Assembly: GCF_017908035.1 (NCBI RefSeq)
Contig: NZ_JAEQMU010000001.1
Coordinates: forward strand, 1,612,001-1,676,000
Reading direction: 5' to 3'
Source of the DNA: Sphingobacterium tabacisoli
Lineage (GTDB): Bacteria; Bacteroidota; Bacteroidia; Sphingobacteriales; Sphingobacteriaceae
DNA: 64,000 nucleotides
The translations under genes were made by a program, and so were the position numbers. Positions 32,234-61,887 of this stretch are shown here, in pieces (within the stretch, counting starts at the first letter, position 1; every line of letters begins with the position of its first letter). A model generated the notes under the pieces. The model was not told the DNA's origin, did not search any database, and saw only the letters and a list, made by a program, of their open reading frames with translations.

Positions 32234-32827
32234 ATGAAAATGATTGACAAACATAACATTCAAAACGGCATACGCATATTCCTGATGCTATTCTGGCTGT
32301 ACGTCGCTATAGACAAGCTATGGGACAGGGCACTATTTCACCAAGCTCTGGTCAAGCAACCCTTTCCAGACTGGTGGGCAGATGTACTATTATGGGGACT
32401 GCCAGGTATTGAGCTACTGATCTCTATACTATTCCTGGGTAGACCTTTGAAAACAGAGAAAATCTTAATACGCAGAGCATACCAGCTATCTAGCCTATTG
32501 TTAATCGTATTCACTATGTACATAGCATTAGGAGTAGCAGGCCTATATGCGGAAAAGCCCTGTGGCTGCGCTTCGATATTCGCAGGAGTGCCCTGGGCAT
32601 GGCATTTATTGATCAATCTTATACTATTGCTAGTATCGCTTATGGGAGCCCTTATGACAGAGTCAAGCGCCACAAAAGGAGGACTTAAAGCATACAAGAG
32701 ACAGATCAAATTGTTCAGCCCCTATATCCTGAAATTAGCCGCTGCCCTTTTCATCCTTATACTTATCCGCTTCAAAGTATTTAAGCGACGCTTTGCCCCT
32801 TTCCCGGGCAGGCCGGTACTCCAATAA
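32234..32827 (+). CDS. MauE/DoxX-like redox-associated membrane protein
   Basis: 197 residues with about five transmembrane helices. The first begins IRIFLMLFWLYVAIDKLWD, typical of the DoxX/MauE fold, and a conserved-looking CGC motif (Cys110 and Cys112 in EKPCGCASIF) sits at a membrane face. In methylamine utilisation, MauE works with the thioredoxin-like MauD in forming disulfides of a small exported subunit. Here it precedes a small exported protein with two cysteines and converges on a TlpA-like gene. A later ATG (codon 3) is possible. Confidence 0.8.
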   Translation: MKMIDKHNIQNGIRIFLMLFWLYVAIDKLWDRALFHQALVKQPFPDWWADVLLWGLPGIELLISILFLGRPLKTEKILIRRAYQLSSLLLIVFTMYIALGVAGLYAEKPCGCASIFAGVPWAWHLLINLILLLVSLMGALMTESSATKGGLKAYKRQIKLFSPYILKLAAALFILILIRFKVFKRRFAPFPGRPVLQ

Positions 32828-32885
32828 ATTATGATACGTGGGGCTCCGCGTAAAACTTGAAAAAGAACACCCGAGGTATTAACAA

Positions 32886-32919
32886 GACAGATACCCCTCG
32901 TAAAAGCAATGTATCTGTC
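32886..32919 (+). other. Intercistronic stem-loop
   Basis: A perfect 9-bp stem GACAGATAC/GTATCTGTC with a 16-nt loop lies between the MauE-like gene and the small exported protein gene. It lacks a T-run, so it is more likely a processing or stability element than a terminator. Confidence 0.5.
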
Positions 32920-32984
32920 AAAAATAATAAATTAGAGTTTTTTGTCGGGTAAACTTTTTTTAAGATTACAAAAAAGGCCCTCGT

Positions 32985-33311
32985 ATGAAAGCAATTTCAT
33001 ATATCAAAAAAAATAGCATGCTCCTATTAGCAGGAGCCGCTATTCTAAGTTTTTCCAGCTTTAAAGCTGTTGAAAAATATTTGCAGACTAGTTACTATTG
33101 GTTTGAGTATGATGCGACTGGTACAACCCTTTTAAACCAGACAGCAGAGCCTGTATTATCTCCAGAAAATCCATTTGGCTGTGATACTGGAGATCAAAAG
33201 TGTGCTAAAGCATATACCAGTTACAATATGGTTTCCTCCAGCGACTATAGACCTGGAACGGAAGCACTGGAACTTGGACAGCCAATAATAGTCCATAAGG
33301 ACAGCAATTAG
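32985..33311 (+). CDS. Small exported two-cysteine protein (DUF6520-like)
   Basis: 108 residues. An N-terminal hydrophobic signal (SMLLLAGAAILSFSSFKA) is followed by a short polar mature part with two cysteines in FGCDTGDQKCAKAY (Cys66 and Cys73). It resembles the short Bacteroidota exported proteins grouped as DUF6520, though I cannot confirm this. It is the last gene of the MauE transcript and ends before a shared terminator. The two cysteines and the MauE neighbour suggest a disulfide-bonded product. Function unknown. Confidence 0.7.
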   Translation: MKAISYIKKNSMLLLAGAAILSFSSFKAVEKYLQTSYYWFEYDATGTTLLNQTAEPVLSPENPFGCDTGDQKCAKAYTSYNMVSSSDYRPGTEALELGQPIIVHKDSN

Positions 33312-33357
33312 TAGTAGGAAAAATTCATTAGACAACATTAAGAGCTGTTTATAAGTT

Positions 33358-33402
33358 AAGAAGCCCTCAGAATCTCCCCATTGGAAGAACTGGGGGCTTC
33401 TT
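33358..33402. terminator. Bidirectional Rho-independent terminator
   Basis: A 13-bp stem AAGAAGCCCTCAG/CTGGGGGCTTCTT (one G-U pair) with a 19-nt loop lies between the convergent small-protein and TlpA-like genes. Confidence 0.8.
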
Positions 33403-33424
33403 CCGATTAAAAGTCTTAACAGCT

Positions 33425-34738
33425 TTAATCGATAGTAAGCACGTCTATCAATTCATATCCAACTTCAATCTTAAATCCAGTATTTTTTAAATAATCTATC
33501 GCTTCATCAGCTGTCATCCTCTTGTCTAAAATCATGTTTAAAGGCTCATTTAAAACAGCATCCCCTTTAGCTGTTAAAATTGGAGAATTTGTGTAGGTAT
33601 TATTAAAATATTTAATAAGTTCCGATATGCTCAATATAGACTTTCTTTGTTCCGGAGGAATGTATTGGTTTTGCTCTTTACCTCTCTCAACTCTACCAGA
33701 GACGGCTTCTATCCGAAAACATTGCATTTTTTGAGGGCGAATACCAGTTTTCACATCCAAGGAACTTTCCAGCACCTGCAATGCGGCATGTTTGAGTTCT
33801 TTCTGAGAAATACCGTCATGTCCTGCTACAAACAAACAAAACAATTGTTTTTCTCTAAATGCAGTTCTTTCAGCAAAGTCCGTAATGCGTCTGAGACTAT
33901 CCCGATCTTTAAATCGGGCACTGACCTTTTCCGATCGAATTATAAACCTATTCCTATCATCATCAATCCATTTTATCGTTGCTAGATTTTTCTCCTCGTC
34001 ATATATCGATTGCACCATTTCGTATAATGTCTTATTGATATAAACTAGCTTTTCATTCTTCCTATTTACCTGTTTCTTATAAGTCAGTATATTAGAAGAA
34101 AGACCTTTAGCATACGGTGTCATCTTTATTGAAAGAAAGGTAGAGTCTCTTCGCTCCTCGCTTTCTATTACGTTATGAAGGCCGATCCTCTCATAAAACT
34201 GCATTTTAGACACACGTGCAACACGATTCAGTAAAGACATATCTCCCTTTAGAACAAGTTCTAAAACCTCTTTATTTAAAGCTTCTCCCGATGTTTTCAC
34301 CAAAAACTCCCCGTTTCTATCTAACCAAACCACATCTGGATTAGCGATCACCCCAAATAAATTGTTTAAGATTGTGTCACCATATATGGATGGAAGCCTA
34401 AATTCATAAGGTCCTCCTAATTGCTTAGCGGAGGCTCCTGCCACTTGGTTCAAATCATCCTTGGTGACAGGAATTATAACGATATCATCTGGATACTCGA
34501 GCTGTAGCTCATAAAGTTTGGGCATCTGCTGAATGCAAGAGGAGCAGAAACGATTCCAAAAATCAAAGACAATAAACTTACCCTTGTACTGCTGTAAATC
34601 AATAGAATTGGTGTCCCTGTTAGGTTTAAATAGCTTATGCGCATGTTCGAATACGACATCTCGGATTGTTTCATTCGATTGTGCAGATAGCTGTGCAATC
34701 ATAAAAAGACAGAGTAGAGAAAATAAAAAACTACGCAT
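33425..34738 (-). CDS. TlpA-like thioredoxin with a C-terminal domain of unknown function
   Basis: 437 residues. The signal peptide ends near residue 20 (FMIAQLSAQ). Unlike the other two TlpA-like proteins here, the thioredoxin domain comes first (about 25-165), with an unusual WNRFCSSC active site (Cys65 and Cys68). Then follows a 250-residue region ending in SILSISELIKYFNNTYTNSP and ADEAIDYLKNTGFKIE, which recalls DUF3738/STN-like short domains. It closes the SusC/SusD operon and lies one base after the SusD stop. It probably acts in the periplasm on a ligand of that uptake system. Confidence 0.82.
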   Translation of the reverse strand: MRSFLFSLLCLFMIAQLSAQSNETIRDVVFEHAHKLFKPNRDTNSIDLQQYKGKFIVFDFWNRFCSSCIQQMPKLYELQLEYPDDIVIIPVTKDDLNQVAGASAKQLGGPYEFRLPSIYGDTILNNLFGVIANPDVVWLDRNGEFLVKTSGEALNKEVLELVLKGDMSLLNRVARVSKMQFYERIGLHNVIESEERRDSTFLSIKMTPYAKGLSSNILTYKKQVNRKNEKLVYINKTLYEMVQSIYDEEKNLATIKWIDDDRNRFIIRSEKVSARFKDRDSLRRITDFAERTAFREKQLFCLFVAGHDGISQKELKHAALQVLESSLDVKTGIRPQKMQCFRIEAVSGRVERGKEQNQYIPPEQRKSILSISELIKYFNNTYTNSPILTAKGDAVLNEPLNMILDKRMTADEAIDYLKNTGFKIEVGYELIDVLTID

Positions 34739-34739
34739 G

Positions 34740-36137
34740 TCAGTTGGATAAATTATAAAGATTAGGATTTAGGTCGACAACCGGATCCGGTACCGGATAA
34801 ACGTAACGTCGATCGTTAGGATTCATCTGGTAGAGTTTGCTGTTAATTTCACGGGTTAAAACAGTGGCATATTCTGGATCAAGATTTAACCGTTTTAGAT
34901 CTGGCCAGCGCAACCCTCTCCATACCAACTGCTTTCTCCGTTCGGCTAAAATAAGTTTCATCAAAGCTTTACTATCCATTTCTCCATAAGGCATAAAGGT
35001 TGATATGCCCATATTTTTCTTCCACCTGGACAATAATATTTTATTTAAGTCTTTTAGAGCCACATCAGGGTATCCCAGTCTCAAACTCGTCTCCGCACGA
35101 TTAAAGTACAACTCGTCATTGGCCAACCCTGCAAAAAAATAACCTGTACCATCGTAATTTCCATAAAATCGATGCCCATCCCCGACGGACTGCGCTTTGA
35201 AGAATAAAAGCCGTCGCAGATCGTTCTGATCATAAGATTTATACAAGCTCGTATCCATACGAACTTGCGTCGTAAGAAGCATCATGTTACAGTTGAAAAT
35301 CACTTCGTCATTAAATCTTGGAAATGGATAATTGGTTGTGGTCGAATACGTATTATAATCTAACAATTGGTCATTTACTTCAAGACATAAATCAGCATAA
35401 TAATGACTTCGCTCATAGTTCTGCATCCATAGATAAACTCTTGACAGAAGTGCCCAACATGCTCTTTTGGAAGGCCTTGTCTTATATATTGGTTCTTCAG
35501 GCAAAAGTTCACTGGCCTTTAATAAATCTTCAATAATCCTTGCGTAAGTCCTTTCAAGCGAAGAGATACTAAGCTTTTCTCCGACATCGGCACTCATCCG
35601 CAAAGGAATACCGGCTGATTGATCTGCTTTTCCTTTTTCGTACGCAGGCGTAAACACGCTGGTTAGCATTGAAAAAGCATGAGACCTATGAAATAATGCC
35701 ATCCCATACACGAGGTCCCACTGTCCGCTGTTTTCATTCCCCTTTTCAATCTTATGCAGGTTCTCTAAAACTATATTACAGTTTAAAACTGTGATATAAG
35801 GTCTATTCCAATCTTTGATATCCAATGCTGGATAGGGATTCTCCTGCCAATTATAAACAGCTCTTGCATATTCATCTATATTATTCAGATACCGGGCGTC
35901 CGGTATCCATACGTTGTCTGATCCGATTTCCAACATTGCCGGATATAAAGGCTGTGTATTACCGGCCCCATTCATTGCCACATCGTCGTCCATCAATGCC
36001 AGATAATCGTCGAGCGTAGACGGAACAGTCATGGAGGCATCTGGCTTTACATCCAAAAATTCTTTCCTATTACAGGAAATAAAGAAAACCAACATCGCGA
36101 TGATTAGCTTTATATAAAATAACTTTATTGCTTTCAT
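34740..36137 (-). CDS. SusD/RagB-family outer-membrane lipoprotein
   Basis: 465 residues. The lipoprotein signal is MKAIKLFYIKLIIAMLVFFISC. SusD features include LVYGMALFHRSHAFSMLTSVFTPAY, RACWALLSRVYLWMQNYERSHYYADL and the C-terminal LILAERRKQLVWRGLRWPDLKRLNLD with YPVPDPVVDLNPNLYNLSN. It lies 20 bp after the SusC gene and is followed by the TlpA-like gene without a gap. Part of a SusC-SusD-thioredoxin operon without a local sigma factor. Confidence 0.92.
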   Translation of the reverse strand: MKAIKLFYIKLIIAMLVFFISCNRKEFLDVKPDASMTVPSTLDDYLALMDDDVAMNGAGNTQPLYPAMLEIGSDNVWIPDARYLNNIDEYARAVYNWQENPYPALDIKDWNRPYITVLNCNIVLENLHKIEKGNENSGQWDLVYGMALFHRSHAFSMLTSVFTPAYEKGKADQSAGIPLRMSADVGEKLSISSLERTYARIIEDLLKASELLPEEPIYKTRPSKRACWALLSRVYLWMQNYERSHYYADLCLEVNDQLLDYNTYSTTTNYPFPRFNDEVIFNCNMMLLTTQVRMDTSLYKSYDQNDLRRLLFFKAQSVGDGHRFYGNYDGTGYFFAGLANDELYFNRAETSLRLGYPDVALKDLNKILLSRWKKNMGISTFMPYGEMDSKALMKLILAERRKQLVWRGLRWPDLKRLNLDPEYATVLTREINSKLYQMNPNDRRYVYPVPDPVVDLNPNLYNLSN

Positions 36138-36157
36138 GAGAAAAATAAAAAAATGCT

Positions 36158-39100
36158 TTATAATGTTACATTTACGCCGAGGGCATACTGTGGCCCCGTC
36201 CTAACCATTTGTTTAAAATAAGGGTCTATCCCCTGCCTATTCTTCAATACTACCAAAGGCAGGTTTTGGACATGTAAAAAAGTTTGAAGCCTATCTAATC
36301 TGGAACCACAGATTCTTACCCCTGAAAATGAAGCGCTCAGCCTAACATTCTCAACTCTTAAATGATCTCCTTTCAACACCTGGTTAGACGCATTTCTATA
36401 TACAAGCTCACGGTAACTGTTAGCAGGATATACCATCGACGGTACATCTGTCGAGTTTTCATCTCCGGGATTTTTCCATCGCAGTGCAAAATCGCCGTGA
36501 CCGTTCCAAGAACTGAATAATTCAGAATAGCTTAAAGCAGCCCGTCTAAAGAAATATCGCGTCTTATAACTGAGAGCAAACGACAGCTCCAATGCTTTGT
36601 ACCTTACATTATTGTGTACTGCACCATACACAGTAGGCTGTATACTTCCATGAAAAACCATATCTTCCAGTGCAGTAGAACCATATACTACATCATAGTT
36701 TTGACTTTCTTCCCCTTCAAACAACAGTACAGGATTACCTTTGGCAACATCCAGTCCCACCCAAGGAAAACTATACATGCCAAATACTGGGCTGTTCAAA
36801 ACTGGATTTATGGTATTATCCATCATAGAGAGATAGGTGTTTCCTTTGGGACTTACCGGCATAAAGTACTTTGTTACAATGGGATTTGATGTACCTAAAG
36901 AAGTCGATAAATTCCATTTTACACACCTATCTATCAGCAATAGGTTTAGATTAGCATTCACCCCCGTTGTTTTCATCTCGCCGACGTTACCGTAAAAGGT
37001 AGACCTCCCCAACGTAGGATCTAACGGAGCGCTTCCCATTAGATCTTTAGATCTTTTGTCAAAATACTCTAAGCTTCCAGTGACCCGATTATCCTTTAAG
37101 GCGAAGTCAATTCCTACATTAAGAATGTTTACTTTTTCCCACCTCAAATTCGCATTAGGCAACATGTCTAATGATGCTCTGGATAAAGGAGTGGTTCGGG
37201 AACTGCCAGATACGGTAATCACAGGGAGAGCAGAAGCATCTCGCGCAATATTGCCGCTCTGACCATAAGTGATCCTTAGCCCCAACTTAGGAACCAATCC
37301 GTTATGATAGAACGGTTCTTCCGATAATTTCCAGAGAAGACCTGATGACCATAGTGGAGTTCCTTTCTTGTTGCTATTTAAGCCAAATAGATTAGCTTCA
37401 TCTTTTCGAACGCTAGCTGTCAGTGTGTACCGCTCTTTAAAAGTATAGGATCCGTTAGAAAAATAAGAAATAAAATTATCTGTATACTTAGCGATAGATC
37501 TATTGGAGGCTATGCGTTGTTTTAAAAAACTATTATTAAACAGTGTAAATTCTGAAATAAAATCAATTGATGATTCCATTCCGTAGAACTCTTCATTGTA
37601 CCCATATTTTCTATCCGTCTCTACATCTGTTTTACTACTTCGAATCTCCCATCCGCCCATCAATACAAGCTGATGACTATTCGCCCACACTTTATTCCAA
37701 TCCACCTGTATACGTCCTTGATGTACTTTTCGCTTGGCATAAGAGACATCTCGAATTCCTCCTCTAGGAACAGGAAAGCTCAATCGTCCATTCGCTTGTT
37801 GCTGAGCAAATGAATTTACATAACTCCTGGCGTAGTAGGATTCGGGGCTATAGAAGGTTCCCCCATCTGTTAACTGATCTTCAAACTGATACCTAACCCC
37901 TATATTTAGTCCCTTGAATGGCGACATCAACACGGCAGAGTTTATAAGAAAATCAGAGATTTTATTTGAGGTATGCCGTTGATGGATTTCTTCCAATGGC
38001 GTATAAGACCAGTCCAGCCCCTTCTTTAGCGATTCATCTATAAACCTCTTATTATTATCCAAATACAATACTTGAGCTATACCGTTATCATCTCTTAATC
38101 TGGCGTAAGGATATATCGCTTTATTACCTCCAAGTGCAAATGGGGCCTGCCCACTGAGGTTCAAGCCAGGGTTATTCCCTGCTCGAAAAGTCATATTGGT
38201 ATAGGAAAGACTATTAGCCAATGTCAACCAAGTGGCAATCTCAGTCTCACTATTCATCCGTAAAGACAACCGTTGATCACTTTGTGCGATCAAATTGCTC
38301 CGATTTAAATCGTAACCTGCAGAAAAAAGATAGTTTCCACTACGAGACTTATTTCCTATTGATACAGCATACTGCTGTTTTGTTCCAGGCCTGTATAGCT
38401 CATTTAGAATATCCTTTCTTATATCGTAAGTTTTAAACTTGGCAAGTTCGGCAACTACCTTCTCTTCTGTAAGGATACCGTCCCTCTGCTTCTGTAGCAG
38501 CTCTATAACCGGCGTGAATGGTGGGTGACCATTATTTCGAGCATCGGCCTCCTCATCATTTATGTAATGGCCTTTGTCAAACAAAAATTTTTCCAATTCG
38601 ATATAGTCCGCACTCGATATCTGTGACACGGTCGAAAGATCAGGTTTGGCCTGGATTCCCAGTGTACTGTTAAAACTTATTGCCGGCTTATTTCCTTTGG
38701 CTCGTTTCGTTGTAATAACGATGACCCCATTTCCAGCACGTGCCCCCCATATTGAAGCGGCTGCTGCATCCTTGAGCACAGTGACCGATTCTATATCGTT
38801 GGGATTGATGTTTCCTATCTCACCATCGTAGGGGAAGCCATCCAGTACAATCAGCGGTTGTACATCAGCATAAATGCTGGATCGCCCCCTAATCAGGAAT
38901 TTGTCCGGCGCCCCTTCGTTTCTGTCGACAAGCAATCCTGGAACCTGTAGCTCTATACGGTCGATGATATTTCCACTGATCGTTTGGTTCAGTGCTTCGT
39001 TGTTCACGAACTCAAAACTCCCTGTAGCTCGTTCTTTCGGTATATTCTGATAACCCGTAGAGACCACCTCGACCTCTTCAATTTCCTTGCTGCCGCCCTG

Positions 39101-40894
39101 CAGCTGTATCTTTAAAAATGTAGTTGTATTATCATAAGCAACACTTTGCTCTTTAAAACCTATATATTTAATTATTAAAACTCCCTGAGATTTATCTACA
39201 GCGATACTAAATGTACCTTTTGCATCTGTCCGCACTGTCTTTTTACCATTTGTGACCGTCGCCCCTTCGATGACCGCCCCATCGGTAGCCGAGCGTACCT
39301 CTCCCTGAAGTACAAGTCCGGAATCCTCTAGTAGCTTATCCCGTTGCTGAGGGGTTTGAGCAAGCGCCCTAACCCCCAGCAGATCGGGAATACTAAACAA
39401 CACACACAATATCGTTAAAGCTAATAGCTGATAGCCTTTGGCCAATTGCATACACCACACACTTCGTACATCACCTCGTTTCTCCCTCCCGTCATGTCGA
39501 TTGTATCCGCCAGTTGGCGGAGGAATAGAGACATCTAAAAACTTTGCAAAAGAATTGACTTGTTTTAAAGCGATTTGCCGACCTCTATTTTCTTTCACGA
39601 CCACAGACTCCACTTTGTCCCCAAACTCCTCACAGAGCCCCCGAAACCCCCTTGAAATCGATCGATTCATCCAGAGGTCTTCTACAGAAAATGCTCTACC
39701 CTCCTTATGACTAGCTACTTGCGACATACGGCCATCCCTCTCCAAAGCTACCACAGACCTACTACCAGTTAGTACCTCCTTAGTACCTCTTTGGTAGCTC
39801 TCTAGTACCTCTCCAGTACCTTTACCCCCACTATTCAGTACCTTTCCCGTACCTTTACAGTACCTTTCGAGTACCTTTTCTGTATCATTTGCTACCCCCT
39901 CGTCATTGCGAATTGGAGGAACGACAACGAAGCAATCTCCCTCTCCCTCACTACGCCACTTTATTGTCTCACGCTTGGGTGTTTCTTGTATCGTTGCTAG
40001 TTCATCCTTAGTCCGTTGTAGGCTCATCCTTAGTTCATCCTTAGTTGTTTGGTAGTTCATTCCTAGTTCAACCCTAGTTATAGGCTGTGTTAAGGCTAGT
40101 TCAACCTTAGTTCGGGTACCCTCCGCTTCGACAACTCTTCGAGAGCTCTTCGACTCTTCTTCGAGACCGCTTCGAGACTGGTTCGGGACTGCTTCGAGGC
40201 TTCTTCGGGTGGTCTTCGACAAGGCTTCGACGACCCTTCGACGTACCGCCGAACAGGACCCGAACAACGGCCGAACAACAGTCGAACGTGTCTGCAACAT
40301 GGTACGACCCAATCCCGGAGCCACACCGAACCAACCTGCTACCCCACCCGAAGCGCTCTTAGTGCGTTGCCTAAGTAGTCTCCAAGTAGTCTTGAAGTAG
40401 TAACAGTGCGTTATAAGTGTAGTCCAAGACAACACATGACGACTACTTAGCCATAGGCTAGACAGTGCCAAATCCTTAATGGATCTGTGCTTTATCCGTA
40501 GCCTGTCGGTATCTTGTTCGGGACTGCTCCGTACCAGCTTCGGCGTCCGCCTATCTCCCGCCTTATGTTTCTCTACCTTTTCTCTACTGTTTACATAGGC
40601 AAACGAGAGGGAATCGATAGAGAATCTGTAGGGAATCGGTAGACATTTGCCGAACAAGGGGCGAACAAGATGCGAAGCCTGTACGAACGTCGTAAGAAGA
40701 CTTTCCCTGTCTTCGTCTTCTCTACCGTCACTGCGCACTGTTTCGTCATTGCGAACGAAGTGAAGCAATCTATCTCGAAATCTATTATTTCGTTCTATCG
40801 GGCGTCCAGAAAGGTCTTGATAACTGGATAACATGTTAACATGATAACTCTGTCGATTAGACAGTCCTCTTCCACCCCTAAAAAAATGTTTCAT
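36158..40894 (-). CDS. SusC/RagA TonB-dependent receptor with a 481-codon repeat-rich N-terminal extension
   Basis: The frame is open for 1578 codons. The SusC protein proper begins at Met482 (39451): signal peptide MQLAKGYQLLALTILCVLFS, a carboxypeptidase-regulatory-like domain, the plug with QPLIVLDGFPY and KDAAAASIWGARAGNGVIVITTKRAK, and the barrel, 1097 residues in all, a normal SusC length without STN. The first 481 residues are rich in Arg, Lys, Glu and Ser and include about 310 residues encoded by 11-bp tandem repeats, read as 11-residue repeats (for example TKVEL, TRVEL, TKDEL, TKDEL at 11-residue steps). An extension ahead of a signal peptide is very unusual. The real start may be 40894, 39451 or in between. 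Confidence 0.85.
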   Translation of the reverse strand: MKHFFRGGRGLSNRQSYHVNMLSSYQDLSGRPIERNNRFRDRLLHFVRNDETVRSDGREDEDRESLLTTFVQASHLVRPLFGKCLPIPYRFSIDSLSFAYVNSREKVEKHKAGDRRTPKLVRSSPEQDTDRLRIKHRSIKDLALSSLWLSSRHVLSWTTLITHCYYFKTTWRLLRQRTKSASGGVAGWFGVAPGLGRTMLQTRSTVVRPLFGSCSAVRRRVVEALSKTTRRSLEAVPNQSRSGLEEESKSSRRVVEAEGTRTKVELALTQPITRVELGMNYQTTKDELRMSLQRTKDELATIQETPKRETIKWRSEGEGDCFVVVPPIRNDEGVANDTEKVLERYCKGTGKVLNSGGKGTGEVLESYQRGTKEVLTGSRSVVALERDGRMSQVASHKEGRAFSVEDLWMNRSISRGFRGLCEEFGDKVESVVVKENRGRQIALKQVNSFAKFLDVSIPPPTGGYNRHDGREKRGDVRSVWCMQLAKGYQLLALTILCVLFSIPDLLGVRALAQTPQQRDKLLEDSGLVLQGEVRSATDGAVIEGATVTNGKKTVRTDAKGTFSIAVDKSQGVLIIKYIGFKEQSVAYDNTTTFLKIQLQGGSKEIEEVEVVSTGYQNIPKERATGSFEFVNNEALNQTISGNIIDRIELQVPGLLVDRNEGAPDKFLIRGRSSIYADVQPLIVLDGFPYDGEIGNINPNDIESVTVLKDAAAASIWGARAGNGVIVITTKRAKGNKPAISFNSTLGIQAKPDLSTVSQISSADYIELEKFLFDKGHYINDEEADARNNGHPPFTPVIELLQKQRDGILTEEKVVAELAKFKTYDIRKDILNELYRPGTKQQYAVSIGNKSRSGNYLFSAGYDLNRSNLIAQSDQRLSLRMNSETEIATWLTLANSLSYTNMTFRAGNNPGLNLSGQAPFALGGNKAIYPYARLRDDNGIAQVLYLDNNKRFIDESLKKGLDWSYTPLEEIHQRHTSNKISDFLINSAVLMSPFKGLNIGVRYQFEDQLTDGGTFYSPESYYARSYVNSFAQQQANGRLSFPVPRGGIRDVSYAKRKVHQGRIQVDWNKVWANSHQLVLMGGWEIRSSKTDVETDRKYGYNEEFYGMESSIDFISEFTLFNNSFLKQRIASNRSIAKYTDNFISYFSNGSYTFKERYTLTASVRKDEANLFGLNSNKKGTPLWSSGLLWKLSEEPFYHNGLVPKLGLRITYGQSGNIARDASALPVITVSGSSRTTPLSRASLDMLPNANLRWEKVNILNVGIDFALKDNRVTGSLEYFDKRSKDLMGSAPLDPTLGRSTFYGNVGEMKTTGVNANLNLLLIDRCVKWNLSTSLGTSNPIVTKYFMPVSPKGNTYLSMMDNTINPVLNSPVFGMYSFPWVGLDVAKGNPVLLFEGEESQNYDVVYGSTALEDMVFHGSIQPTVYGAVHNNVRYKALELSFALSYKTRYFFRRAALSYSELFSSWNGHGDFALRWKNPGDENSTDVPSMVYPANSYRELVYRNASNQVLKGDHLRVENVRLSASFSGVRICGSRLDRLQTFLHVQNLPLVVLKNRQGIDPYFKQMVRTGPQYALGVNVTL
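39490..39536. repeat. REP-like palindromic element
   Basis: The core TCCGCCA/TGGCGGA (39506-39521) is flanked by GTCATGTCGATTG on the left and AGGAATAGAGACATCT on the right, the build of dispersed REP-type repeats. It lies inside the leader of the SusC frame. Confidence 0.55.
39771..40703. repeat. Array of diverged 11-bp tandem repeats with changing consensus
   Basis: Strict 11-bp spacing is seen in consecutive blocks read on the plus strand: AGTACCTTTCG-like units from 39771 to about 39891; TTAGTTCATCC-like units 39997-40117; CTTCGA-headed units 40126-40246; CCGAAC-headed, then CCTAAG-headed units 40249-40402; further in-phase units 40517-40703 (including GATAGAGAATC and GCCGAACAAGG). A REP-like element interrupts the array at about 39899-39940. 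All lies within the open SusC frame. Confidence 0.88.
39899..39940. repeat. REP-like element
   Basis: The ends CGTCATTGCGAATTGGAGGA and ACGAAGCAATCTC match the common bacterial 'GTCATTGCGA...GAAGCAATC' dispersed repeat. It lies between two 11-bp repeat blocks, in frame with SusC. Confidence 0.6.
40743..40770. repeat. REP-like element
   Basis: A short version of the same repeat, CGTCATTGCGAACGAAG followed by TGAAGCAATC. In the SusC frame it reads LLHFVRNDE, a peptide often produced when such repeats are translated. Confidence 0.6.
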
Positions 40895-41515
40895 TCTTTA
40901 AGTTCATTAGTGTGACCTAATGAGGGCGGGACTGAGAGCTACTTCTATCAATAACCAACCGTACCCAATCCTTGATTAGGCCACACGGTTCAATAAAATA
41001 GTTAACTGAATATCAAGGATGTGCCAAATGAGAGTTAAAGTAATATAATCGGTTTATAATGCACACCTCAAGAAATAGGAAAGTCATAATAAATGACTAA
41101 GCTTCCGGAGCTACTCTGGCCCTTTGATAATGTTTTTTGTTCTTTGTTTTAAGCTCATACTCGTTATTGGTTAACGAGTCTTGGGCGTGTAGAATCGATA
41201 AGTGCGGGACTACATGCCGTGCCTACAGTTTAAGTTTCTGACGCCTAACGTAACACGGACTAACAGTAGGCCCACACCTATCTTAAAAAGCAAATATAGT
41301 AAAATGCCTTAAATAAGGATAGATATGGGTATTTAAACTACTGCCTTGCGTTACGGCGTCAGAATATGTAGGCGCAAGACTCTGGATTTAAACACCAAAA
41401 TTCTTAAGAAAACAACTATTATTTTCTTTCTATACCAAAGATAAGTATTAGCACTGAATAAATGAAATTATATACGAGAAAAATGATATAAAGAAATATT
41501 CATGTACTTGATAAC
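40895..41515. other. Intergenic region with inverted repeats
   Basis: About 620 bp without a gene, between the divergent SusC leader and the XRE-like gene. It holds an ATCCTTGAT/ATCAAGGAT inverted repeat (40968-40976 with 41012-41020) and a larger imperfect palindrome at 41176-41382. Promoters for both sides must lie here; I cannot place them. Confidence 0.55.
41176..41382. repeat. Large imperfect palindrome
   Basis: Left-arm segments GAGTCTTGGGCG (41176), TTCTGACGCCTAACGTAA (about 41236) and CCTATCTT pair with right-arm AAGGATAG, TTGCGTTACGGCGTCAGAA (about 41345) and GCGCAAGACTC (41372-41382). It could be a MITE-like element, a structured RNA or a recombination site. Confidence 0.5.
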
Positions 41516-42076
41516 ATGGATGCAACTAATATCGAATATTTGTCACCTCTCGATCTTTATATTATAATTAAAGTCAAATTTTATCGTCTTGAACTTGGAA
41601 TTCCTCCAAAAGAGCTTTCTAGCCACTTAGATAGAAATAAAAACTACATTGGGAATATTGAGAGTAGCGCACATAACGGAAAGTATAATGATTCAGTCTT
41701 AAATGATATTGCAGCGTACTTCACACAAAAAGCAAAAGAGCGTAAATCTACAAGCAAAGTTGAATTCTCGATTCACGACTTCTATCCCACTGACATCCTT
41801 AGTGACAACAGAGTTATCAAGGATATACCACATATCCTCAGCGAATCTGGTCCTACAGGAACACTAAACTCTCTCATCGAATCAACAGACTTTTTCAAAA
41901 CAAAAAAAACTCTAAAAGAGATTGTTAAAAAAGCAAACGAAGTTCAAAATCAAACTTGGAAAGGTAGTAATTTTACTCAACCATTGGAAAATGCTGTAAA
42001 AAGCGAACGCCTTACTTTAACGATTATTGATGGTCTTAATAGCTATACACTAACCAAAAACAAAAAAAAGGATTAG
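41516..42076 (+). CDS. XRE-like helix-turn-helix protein (paralogue 1)
   Basis: 186 residues. An HTH-like segment lies at about 10-60 (IKVKFYRLELGIPPKELSSHLDRNKNYIGNIES). The C-terminal half is Lys-rich and ends PLENAVKSERLTLTIIDGLN. It is the first of two tandem genes (28 bp apart) whose N-terminal and C-terminal halves resemble each other, and is AT-rich compared with the SusCD loci, suggesting recent transfer. A regulator or antitoxin-like role is possible; the family is not recognised. Confidence 0.6.
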   Translation: MDATNIEYLSPLDLYIIIKVKFYRLELGIPPKELSSHLDRNKNYIGNIESSAHNGKYNDSVLNDIAAYFTQKAKERKSTSKVEFSIHDFYPTDILSDNRVIKDIPHILSESGPTGTLNSLIESTDFFKTKKTLKEIVKKANEVQNQTWKGSNFTQPLENAVKSERLTLTIIDGLNSYTLTKNKKKD

Positions 42077-42104
42077 TATATTTGCCCAAGCAGTTGCCAA
42101 TATT

Positions 42105-42749
42105 ATGAAATCCAGATTCAGTGAAGTAGAGAAACATGAAATGCCAATGGTAGAGATTGAGAAAATGCTCAATGTCTTTTTACTTAGAACAGCCAAAGGT
42201 TATAGCCAATATGAGTTGTCTTTTCTACTAGGTCAGGAAGATTTTTATGTTCGGAAAATTGAGGATATAAACCATACCCTTGAGTATAAAATCGAAAAGT
42301 CAAATATATTAAGGCAGATTTTCAATTGCGGATTTCCAGCCATAGTCCCAAATACCAATATCTCTCCAAGGTATACAATTAAGATCTTTGAACTCAAGAA
42401 TGAAACGGAGCACATCACATACAAATCTGAAAAAGTATTTGCCGACGGCACTATAGAGGAAATTGCAATATTTGGTACAGAAGACAAGGAGCTGCTGCTG
42501 CCATCGGCAAGTACAGTCACCGAAGAAGAAGTCACGGCGTGGGTATTAGCAAAATGCCAGACAGACTATTTCAACACATCCAGAACAGCCCTCCAAATAC
42601 TCAAGGACTACGAAGCAGAACTAGAACAGCCAATCCGTCCCCTATTCCTCGTCAACGCCCTAAAATCCTGCAACGGCACGAAAGGAATGCCAAAGATCAA
42701 CAAGAAGAAGGATGACAATGCGAGGTTTGTTTATTGGACCAATGGTTGA
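42105..42749 (+). CDS. XRE-like helix-turn-helix protein (paralogue 2)
   Basis: 214 residues. An HTH-like segment lies at about 18-60 (LNVFLLRTAKGYSQYELSFLLGQEDFYVRKIED). A middle beta-rich stretch (YTIKIFELKNETEHITYKSEKVFADGT) leads to a C-terminal domain IRPLFLVNALKSCNGTKGMPKIN. It follows paralogue 1 by 28 bp and ends before a terminator at 42847. The pair probably forms one transcript. Target and role unknown. Confidence 0.62.
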   Translation: MKSRFSEVEKHEMPMVEIEKMLNVFLLRTAKGYSQYELSFLLGQEDFYVRKIEDINHTLEYKIEKSNILRQIFNCGFPAIVPNTNISPRYTIKIFELKNETEHITYKSEKVFADGTIEEIAIFGTEDKELLLPSASTVTEEEVTAWVLAKCQTDYFNTSRTALQILKDYEAELEQPIRPLFLVNALKSCNGTKGMPKINKKKDDNARFVYWTNG

Positions 42750-42846
42750 CGTCCAAATTATATATCAAACAACTACTAGACTTACCTATTTTACCACCAA
42801 GCATATTTGTGTGCCCCTTCGCAAACTATTGCTATGATACAGAAAA

Positions 42847-42885
42847 AAAGCTACCCCAAAGTACATTCAGAGTAGCTTTCAATGT
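42847..42885. terminator. Probable Rho-independent terminator
   Basis: An 8-bp stem AAAGCTAC/GTAGCTTT with a 17-nt loop lies between the XRE pair and the convergent lipoprotein genes. The loop is long, so this is less certain than the others. Confidence 0.6.
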
Positions 42886-42974
42886 AATACACTAAACTTT
42901 GTTATAGATAATTATCGAATGTATTTGTATTATTTTTGTTCGTTTATTTTACCGTCATGAGTACTTCTGAAAAT

Positions 42975-43403
42975 TTAATAAGACATAAAAACACGGATTC
43001 CGCCTTTATTCATAGTTGTAAATGATATTATCTTGTTTTCCTCAGTAAGTATATGGAAATCAATTCTGGTTTTATCTTTTTGAGATATAGTATAGATTTC
43101 TCCATCTTTCACATCTTCATAAAAATATTTTGATGTGTCACTGATTCGTGTGATTACTAAATCACTAAGAGGTACTTTCTTTAGATATTGCTGCAGCGAG
43201 TTCAACTGTATATCGAGAAATTCATTACGTTGTTGAATGAGAGTATCTCCAGTTATTAATTGATATTTATCCCTGATAGCTCCAAAGTTATTACATTCTT
43301 TTACATCAGACAAAAATCCTTTAATGAGCCCCTTATGTCCTTGATAAGAACAGTTAACACTCACAATTAAAATGGAAAGTAAAAATAATATTGTACGATT
43401 CAT
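42975..43403 (-). CDS. Small lipoprotein, possible partner of the papain-like lipoprotein
   Basis: 142 residues from the ATG at 43403; the frame is open further upstream, but only this start gives the lipoprotein signal MNRTILFLLSILIVSVNC. The mature part is polar, with LNSLQQYLKKVPLSDLVITRISDTS and a C-terminal beta-rich HILTEENKIISFTTMNKGGIRVF. It lies 10 bp after the stop of the larger lipoprotein gene. Size, location and order would suit a periplasmic immunity or accessory protein; this is inference. Confidence 0.62.
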   Translation of the reverse strand: MNRTILFLLSILIVSVNCSYQGHKGLIKGFLSDVKECNNFGAIRDKYQLITGDTLIQQRNEFLDIQLNSLQQYLKKVPLSDLVITRISDTSKYFYEDVKDGEIYTISQKDKTRIDFHILTEENKIISFTTMNKGGIRVFMSY

Positions 43404-61774: not shown

Positions 61775-61816
61775 TATGCTAGCATACAATTGGCACAGCT
61801 TTTGTAAATGTATCAG
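61775..61816 (+). promoter_or_regulatory. Sigma-54-like promoter with upstream palindrome
   Basis: TTGGCACAGCTTTTGTA at 61790-61806 fits the -24/-12 pattern TGGCAC-N5-TTGC except that the last C is T. A perfect 12-bp palindrome TATGCTAGCATA (61775-61786) lies just upstream. No coding gene follows on this strand. Confidence 0.4.
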
Positions 61817-61887
61817 TATTCATAATTTAGGTTAATAATTGGTTAGTTAAAAAGACCTGAAGCTCCCCGCTTCAGGTCTTTTTTTGG
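61812..61887 (+). ncRNA. Candidate small RNA ending in a strong terminator
   Basis: The sigma-54-like promoter at 61790 is followed within about 75 nt by a terminator hairpin AAAGACCTGAAG/CTTCAGGTCTTT (61851-61887) with a long T-run, and there is no ORF between them or after them on the plus strand. The transcript start is an estimate, and the hairpin may alternatively end an unseen transcript. Confidence 0.4.

What the first reader, a model, noticed from the sequence alone, without database searches (positions are those of the whole stretch)
39771..40703. About 930 bp of 11-bp tandem repeats whose stop triplets are removed only in the SusC frame
Seen directly: successive blocks with exact 11-bp spacing but different consensus (AGTACCTTTCG, TTAGTTCATCC, CTTCGAGACCG, CCGAACAACGG, GATAGAGAATC). 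Because 11 is not a multiple of 3, each reading frame meets every phase of the unit once per 33 bp. In block 39997-40117 most units carry TCA and TTA/CTA (TGA, TAA, TAG on the minus strand). Units 2, 5, 8 and 11, where TCA would fall in the SusC frame, have lost it, and units 3, 6 and 9, where TTA/CTA would fall in frame, have lost that. This every-third pattern is what selection for translation would leave. The product is a domain of 11-residue repeats. Inference: gain or loss of one unit would shift the frame, so the array could act as a switch for SusC translation, or the peptide repeat itself has a role.
Basis: partly seen in the sequence, partly recalled or inferred. Interest (0 to 1): 0.9.

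Follow-up and report, generated by a model that had tools for sequence, protein, structure and literature searches.

The report
Frame-locked 11-bp arrays in SusC leaders
In Sphingobacterium, an outer-membrane transporter gene starts with about 500 codons made largely of 11-base DNA repeats; this stretch is kept free of stop codons while its protein sequence appears to drift freely, and related leaders are shared and swapped between unrelated operons.

Summary
Confirmed and extended. The 11-bp periodicity is real (lag-11 identity 0.52, other lags 0.25); the minus strand has 0 stops in the SusC frame, 28 and 43 in the others; the every-third pattern is exact (15 of 15 off-frame stop sites present, 0 of 7 in-frame). 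The stretch is the N-terminal leader of a Sphingobacterium SusC-SusD-TlpA operon, between a start motif (MxxFxxxGxxL in many relatives) and the signal peptide; relatives run from about 20 to 590 residues. Homologous leaders front SusC or thioredoxin-like genes. In seven leaders of one genome substitutions are equal at the three codon positions and every indel is a multiple of 3: frame kept, amino acids free. Substitution instead follows 11-bp phase (CG core 0 of 30 columns variable, rest 47 of 133), suggesting nucleic-acid constraint. Such arrays also occur outside genes, often upstream of DUF6266 genes. Leaders and operon bodies recombine: a body 97% identical to the window's stands behind a different leader in S. 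faecale. A frame switch is not supported: measured intact alleles have 20 or 23 units; the one off-phase leader (18) precedes a truncated SusC. Translation from the distal start, export and array function remain inferred.

The parts
36158..40894 (-). 1578-aa ORF: leader + signal peptide + SusC/RagA TonB-dependent receptor
   Evidence: Plug 4.9e-13, CarbopepD_reg_2 8.2e-8; TIGR04056 2.2e-128 on the SusC part
39452..40894 (-). leader, 481 codons, 0 stops in frame
   Evidence: homologous leaders
40859..40894 (-). start motif MKHFFRGGRGLS (MxxFxxxGxxL in many, not all, relatives)
40536..40734 (-). 11-bp periodic segment (block E)
40350..40432 (-). 11-bp block F (TACTTNNNGAC type)
40120..40333 (-). 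11-bp blocks D/C (TTCGG then TCGAAG type); CG core invariant between the leaders compared
39990..40114 (-). 11-bp block B (GAACTA type), every-third stop pattern
39762..39882 (-). 11-bp block A (GGTACT type)
39356..39451 (-). signal peptide MQLAKGYQLLALTILCVLF..ALAQ (cleavage site inferred)
   Evidence: hydrophobic maximum
32789..39304 (-). operon body (SusC after the signal peptide, SusD, TlpA-like) about 95-97% identical to an S. faecale operon that has a different leader
34740..36137 (-). SusD-like protein
   Evidence: SusD-like_3 2.7e-31
33425..34738 (-). TlpA/ResA-like thioredoxin-fold protein
40910..40986 (-). 5'UTR stem-loop GTGTGGCCTAAT..ATTAGGTCACAC, 15 nt before the leader ATG, similar stem in several relatives
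   Evidence: (z -1.8)
41516..42749 (+). two divergent small genes upstream (HTH-like by eye only; no Pfam match, one weak sub-cut-off NCBIfam hit), 81% identical to those of a different S. faecale operon

Best explanation
This is the translated leader of a Sphingobacterium SusC operon. Translation starts at the ATG at 40894 and runs through about 495 codons, largely 11-bp arrays, into the signal peptide and SusC. Short relatives show the likely ancestral form, a start motif followed within about 20-57 residues by the signal peptide; arrays and other dispersed repeats have accumulated in this n-region. Selection keeps the reading frame open but not the amino-acid sequence. The arrays are a dispersed element constrained in 11-bp phase, so their own role is most likely at the nucleic-acid level (protein binding, DNA bending or recombination). 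Upstream genes, 5'UTR, leader and signal peptide together act as a shared 5' module behind which SusC-SusD-TlpA bodies are exchanged. Shown by sequence: open frame, frame-preserving indels within one genome, no codon-position bias, 11-bp-phase constraint, leader/body discordance. Inferred: that SusC is made from the distal ATG, that the long n-region stays cytoplasmic and is removed, and that the arrays bind protein or aid recombination.
For: 28 of 29 rows with E <= 1e-20 free of stops. 0 stops against 410 and 547 in the other frames over 6827 codons of 18 leaders (selection of these leaders is partly circular). G092, seven leaders: mismatch by codon position 0.087/0.079/0.090, all indels 3, 9, 114, 123 or 168 nt. 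CG core 0 of 30 variable columns against 47 of 133 in six leaders; of periods 5-19 only 11 gives a signal (p = 0.0013; others p >= 0.13), codon phase p = 0.84. Graded leader lengths. Same leader on SusC or thioredoxin-like first genes in G092. Body 97.0% over 5916 bp with leader 75.9% over 598 bp for G000a/G057b; leader 80.8% over 1389 bp with no body match for G000a/G057a. GAACTA- and GGTACT-type arrays outside genes have stops in all six frames (L080, L081). Precedent for an 11-bp direct-repeat array as a protein site: ospC operator of Borrelia (PMC10127594, passages).
Against: No expression or proteomic data. 17 of 18 leaders have a Met within 18 codons of the signal-peptide core, so an internal start is possible, though in five it lies only 2-3 residues before the motif and in G092d the nearest is 80 codons away. 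TCGAA-type arrays are stop-poor in every frame even when non-coding, so openness there says little. In the cross-species alignments many single gaps are not multiples of 3 and 53-160 aligned positions per pair are out of codon phase (segments there are partly not homologous). Of seven loci with a broken or missing body, two (L220, L231) still have the leader open through the signal peptide and four (L232, L235, L241, L246) are open over 285-394 codons before stops appear; only L190 is broken inside the array. The 11-phase test treats columns as independent; in G092 alone it is weaker (p = 0.017). The window's own C/D array has no excess RNA structure.
Confidence: 0.6

Rival explanations
1. Frame switch (contingency locus): gain or loss of 11-bp units turns SusC on and off.
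For: The unit is not a multiple of 3 and the other frames are full of stops. One S. faecale leader (L190) has 18 instead of 20 units and is out of frame.
Against: Units are degenerate (0.52 identity to the neighbour). Four intact alleles measured hold 20, 20, 20 and 23 units. L190 also carries an in-frame TAG and a truncated SusC, so it looks like decay. All seven G092 leaders are in frame.
Confidence: 0.1
2. SusC starts at an internal Met next to the signal peptide; the leader must be translated only to keep Rho from stopping transcription.
For: A Met lies within 18 codons of the signal-peptide core in 17 of 18 leaders; a 500-residue n-region is unusual for export (recalled).
Against: Coupling would not need the same frame, yet at the 23 loci of the strongest rows the match reads open in the frame of the first gene except at L190. 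In 5 of the 17 the Met is 2-3 residues before the motif, and G092d lacks it. Short relatives start at the distal motif.
Confidence: 0.22
3. The 11-residue repeat is a functional (for example coiled-coil) N-terminal domain of SusC.
For: 33 bp gives 11 residues, so the peptide is periodic.
Against: Equal substitution at the three codon positions; periodicity is in the DNA at 11, not 33 bp; no Pfam match over cut-off in the leader; similar arrays are non-coding elsewhere.
Confidence: 0.04
4. Selfish repeats only: the arrays have no function and are merely tolerated in a permissive n-region.
For: Arrays are dispersed, also near unrelated genes in another family (G342). The leader also holds another dispersed repeat read in two codon phases.
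Against: The CG core is conserved between leaders while spacers change; the array is among the most conserved parts of the G092 leaders; repeated association with DUF6266 genes and SusC/TlpA operons.
Confidence: 0.25

Closest known systems
11-bp direct repeats of the ospC operator in Lyme borreliae, site of the repressor Gac (PMC10127594, passages seen)
   Same: Tandem 11-bp direct repeats, 2 to 7 copies, plus an inverted copy, at the 5' end of a surface-protein gene; a protein binds at or near them.
   Different: Few near-identical copies, not translated; here dozens of degenerate units inside a reading frame and at other places. No relationship is claimed.
Rickettsia palindromic elements (RPE), as described in PMC10969869 (passages seen)
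   Same: A dispersed repeat that sits inside reading frames without breaking them.
   Different: RPEs are about 150-bp elements inserted in unrelated metabolic genes; here 11-bp tandem arrays of variable length lie in one place, before the signal peptide.
Extended signal peptides of autotransporters (ESPR; PMC2805444, abstract and introduction seen)
   Same: N-terminal extension in front of an ordinary signal peptide.
   Different: That extension is about 25 residues; here up to about 590 residues with no visible amino-acid constraint, on SusC and TlpA-like proteins.
Simple-sequence contingency loci (recalled)
   Same: Tandem units not a multiple of three inside a surface-protein reading frame.
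   Different: Degenerate units, frame conserved across species, unit number 20 or 23 in the intact alleles measured.
DNA-inversion phase variation of surface genes in Bacteroides fragilis (start of abstract of PMC4747536 in the search listing)
   Same: Recombination changes surface-gene expression in a related phylum member.
   Different: No inversion site or recombinase was looked for here; exchange is seen between species and loci, and the leader is coding.

Membership tests
SusC/RagA TonB-dependent receptor (the gene body) | TIGR04056 over curated cut-off, Plug domain | tested here: met
   430 bits against 368.25; Plug 4.9e-13
SusC/RagA TonB-dependent receptor (the gene body) | SusD partner next to it | tested here: met
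   window 34740-36137, SusD-like_3 2.7e-31
Phase-variable tandem-repeat contingency locus | near-identical units able to slip | tested here: not met
   lag-11 identity 0.52; TRF 64-83% matches in short pieces
Phase-variable tandem-repeat contingency locus | unit number varies between alleles so that frame changes | tested here: inconclusive
   20, 20, 20, 23 units in four intact alleles; 18 in a truncated one; no isolates compared
RPE-like in-frame dispersed repeat | same kind of repeat both outside and inside ORFs, frame kept | tested here: met
   L080, L081 against leaders
RPE-like in-frame dispersed repeat | element of fixed length with defined ends | tested here: not met
   arrays of variable length and several core types
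Extended signal peptide (ESPR type) | short extension of about 25 residues | tested here: not met
   leader lengths about 20 to 593 residues
Structured cis-regulatory RNA | excess folding stability of the array | tested here: inconclusive
   z -3.1 to -6.8 in 9 of 10 arrays, about 0 for the window's; no Rfam family in window 39000-43000
11-bp operator array bound by a regulator | a protein binds the repeats | not testable with these tools
   only phase constraint is shown

The most novel reading that the evidence does not exclude
A nucleic-acid element, an array phased to about one helical turn (11 bp), is laid over coding sequence whose amino acids are free but whose frame is locked. It forms the common 5' docking module through which Sphingobacterium exchanges SusC-SusD-TlpA operon bodies between loci and species. 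This would be both a new kind of dual-constraint sequence and a new route of surface-receptor diversification.
Probability: 0.35. Interest if true: 0.88.

Novelty: new variant of a known kind. Interest (0 to 1): 0.77.

Why it matters
Coding sequence that seems selected only for being open is rarely seen so cleanly: no stops, frame-preserving indels and equal change at all codon positions over hundreds of codons. It gives a natural measure of how long a signal-peptide n-region can become, a test bed for how non-coding repeats become protein, and a candidate mechanism for exchanging nutrient-receptor operons in a genus rich in SusC genes (56 scored matches over the cut-off in this genome).

Tried and rejected
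RNA structure of the array in the window: no excess stability (z 0.2, -0.2, -0.05). Protein domain in the leader: nothing over cut-off in Pfam. Known RNA family: none in window 39000-43000 at E <= 0.5; in 11 other loci one hit, away from the leader (DUF805b at L199:225-259). A preference for 33-bp over 11-bp duplication: not seen, identity falls with lag 11, 22, 33 in all 21 leaders.

Limits of the counts; 23 leaders were listed in the script (G010, G014) had no coordinates and were skipped, 3 of the remaining 21 (G107a, G107b, G097a) were dropped because the signal-peptide motif was not matched; the 18 were taken from open ORFs, so their zero stops is partly by construction. The less circular figure is 28 of 29 rows, but that includes the query, several rows per locus, at most 17 scored candidates per genome, and a threshold chosen by me; weaker rows with many stops occur at intact loci too, where I take them for the array read out of frame. 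figures include poorly aligned segments; 3 of 20 loci dropped (plug motif not matched). Of 13 thioredoxin-type first ORFs, 8 are over a curated cut-off and 5 (L222, L223, L243, L245, L250) are not. I first took loss of frame in L190 as a clean natural control; checking the other damaged loci showed it is one of seven, so I no longer do.

Papers: ten searches (the last-but-three two aimed at RPE and ESPR) listed no description of these arrays or leaders; only listings were seen, plus passages or sections of three papers. Most subscription papers are not in that library. DUF6266: no paper in it.

Full report
1. Check. The 11-bp periodicity at 39771-40703 is strong (lag-11 identity 0.518; lags not divisible by 11 mean 0.249, sd 0.018; codon shuffles at most 0.299), and no other stretch of the window reaches it. 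On the minus strand the SusC frame has 0 stops over 39451-40894, the other frames 28 and 43. The every-third pattern in 39997-40117 is exact: 15 of 15 off-frame stop sites present, 0 of 7 in-frame (p = 6e-6).

2. What it is. The stretch lies in one ORF, 36158-40894, that ends in a SusC receptor (TIGR04056 2.2e-128), followed by SusD and a TlpA-like gene. The genus is Sphingobacterium: 6 of 7 named loci are of that genus, and contig lengths tie G009 to S. paucimobilis HER1398, G057 to S. faecale C459-1 and G068 to S. nematocida. A second SusC in the same genome (C1:465125-466618) has a leader 56% identical in protein over its best stretch. In the genus 42 of 93 genomes have a match to the leader at E <= 1e-5, arrays outside leaders included. 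Of 29 rows with E <= 1e-20, at 23 loci, 28 are free of stops.

3. Anatomy. Many leaders begin with MxxFxxxGxxL; others do not (G009a and G107a MKTNKIDI, L087 MNIKNLY, L222 MRKLRNW, L239 MNTLKLL). They end in a signal peptide; start-to-core distance runs from 21-29 residues (L066, L067, L052) through 50-218 to about 490-590. The first gene may be SusC or a thioredoxin-like protein: in G092 seven operons share one leader, two in front of SusC and five in front of another ORF, of which the two tested, L193 and L199, have thioredoxin-fold hits. In all, 13 of 15 array-bearing first ORFs without a SusC plug that I tested gave thioredoxin-type hits, 8 of them over a cut-off; L241 and L246 gave none. 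In L199 the leader and its signal peptide stand in front of what looks like a second signal peptide (by eye).

4. What selection sees. In the seven G092 leaders mismatch by codon position is 0.087, 0.079, 0.090, variable columns 64, 51 and 63 of 274 each, and every indel in the 21 pairs is a multiple of 3. Between species codon positions are also equal (for example 0.277, 0.267, 0.289 for window against G009b), but there single gaps are often not multiples of 3 and 53-160 positions per pair are aligned out of phase, because parts are not homologous. Over 18 leaders the coding frame has 0 stops in 6827 codons, the others 410 and 547 (partly circular). Thus the frame is kept and amino acids are not. 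The same mismatches sorted by 11-bp phase are uneven: in the TCGAA block of six leaders the CG columns vary in 0 of 30, the rest in 47 of 133 (p = 1.2e-5); among periods 5 to 19 only 11 stands out (p = 0.0013), codon phase gives p = 0.84. In G092 it is 0 of 36 against 21 of 164 (p = 0.017). I read this as constraint on nucleic acid.

5. The arrays outside the leader. In 800 kb of the own genome four segments outside the SusC leader pass the threshold; all four lie 104-222 bp upstream of an ORF. The pattern TCGAA-N6 repeated four times is in 22 of 93 genus genomes and in 2 of 295 genomes of a class sample (the own one, and G342 of another family with 11 hits on 11 contigs); the reversed control pattern gave 0 hits in the genus and 1 in the class sample. 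Several non-leader arrays lie upstream of similar genes; all six tested are DUF6266. Others lie elsewhere (L205 between convergent genes; L211 of G342 by an unrelated gene). GAACTA- and GGTACT-type arrays in non-coding DNA carry stops in all six frames (L080, L081), but TCGAA-type arrays are stop-poor in any frame. In some arrays (G092, G065:C18, G009:C2) units of opposite orientation face each other, and 9 of 10 tested have folding z of -3.1 to -6.8; the window's is about 0.

6. Unit number and damaged loci. Between fixed anchors G009a and G057a hold 20 units (G000a has the same spacing), G057b 23, and L190 18. L190 is out of frame, has an in-frame TAG, and its SusC is cut off. It is one of seven loci with a broken or missing body. 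In L220 and L231 the leader is still open through the signal peptide and the damage is in SusC; in L232, L235, L241 and L246 the leader is open for 285-394 codons, then stops or foreign sequence follow and no body is left. So damaged loci do not yet show how fast the frame is lost.

7. Exchange. From window 39304 to 32789 the operon body is about 95-97% identical to one in S. faecale (G057:C37), whereas flanking sequence is 74-78% and another stretch of the window matches that genome at 76%. The leader there is different. The window's upstream genes, 5'UTR and leader instead match another S. faecale operon (81% over 40862-42734), whose body is unrelated. In G092 the leaders are 81-99% identical in 60-column windows, the array among the highest, and identity falls to about 40% on both sides. 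So the upstream genes, leader and signal peptide behave as one module and the operon body as another. No recombinase was looked for.

8. How it likely works. Translation from the distal start through the array into SusC is the simplest reading of points 2 to 4. Export of such a precursor, for instance as a signal anchor cut by signal peptidase, is inference. A Met lies near the signal peptide in 17 of 18 leaders, so an internal start remains possible. The role of the arrays is unknown; phase constraint and placement favour DNA binding or recombination over a peptide function. A precedent for 11-bp direct repeats as a protein site is the ospC operator of Lyme borreliae (PMC10127594, passages).

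9. Known or new. SusC operons, in-frame dispersed repeats (PMC10969869, passages), long signal peptides (PMC2805444, abstract and introduction) and 11-bp operator repeats are known. The combination here, 11-bp phase constraint inside a frame-locked leader that is exchanged between operons, was not in the listings of ten searches of the paper library.

Noticed in passing
window 40910-40986 (-), and L140, L138, L146, L089, C1:779067: 5'UTR stem GTGTGGCCTAAT..ATTAGGTCACAC ending 15-18 nt before the leader ATG in these loci (67 nt in L202); AAT/ATT in some is AAG/CTT in others, as if compensatory. No Rfam match in the window region. Possible new cis-regulatory RNA.
   Followed up: partly
L193-L196, L199 (G092), upstream of the leader ATG: A different 5'UTR hairpin with apparent compensatory changes (CGTAGTCT..AGACTACG, GCATAGTTT..AAACTATGC) inside GCCCTC..GAGGGC.
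   Followed up: no
window 39901-39943 and 40742-40772: Dispersed repeat GATTGCTTC..CGCAATGACG inside the leader, read in two different codon phases; also four copies in 800 kb of the genome.
   Followed up: partly
L225, L227, L228, L229, L204, L214: DUF6266 genes with an 11-bp array upstream; no paper on this family in the library.
   Followed up: partly
G342 (L211-L215): TCGAA 11-bp arrays, 11 hits on 11 contigs, in a genome of another family of the class.
   Followed up: partly
window 61785-61886: Short sequence around a terminator-like hairpin with many similar copies in the six relatives searched.
   Followed up: no
L232, L235, L241, L246: Leader ORFs with arrays but no SusC or thioredoxin body behind them, possibly orphan leaders.
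   Followed up: partly
L231, L233, L234, L200, L201: Several contigs end inside or near these leaders, as if the arrays break short-read assemblies.
   Followed up: no
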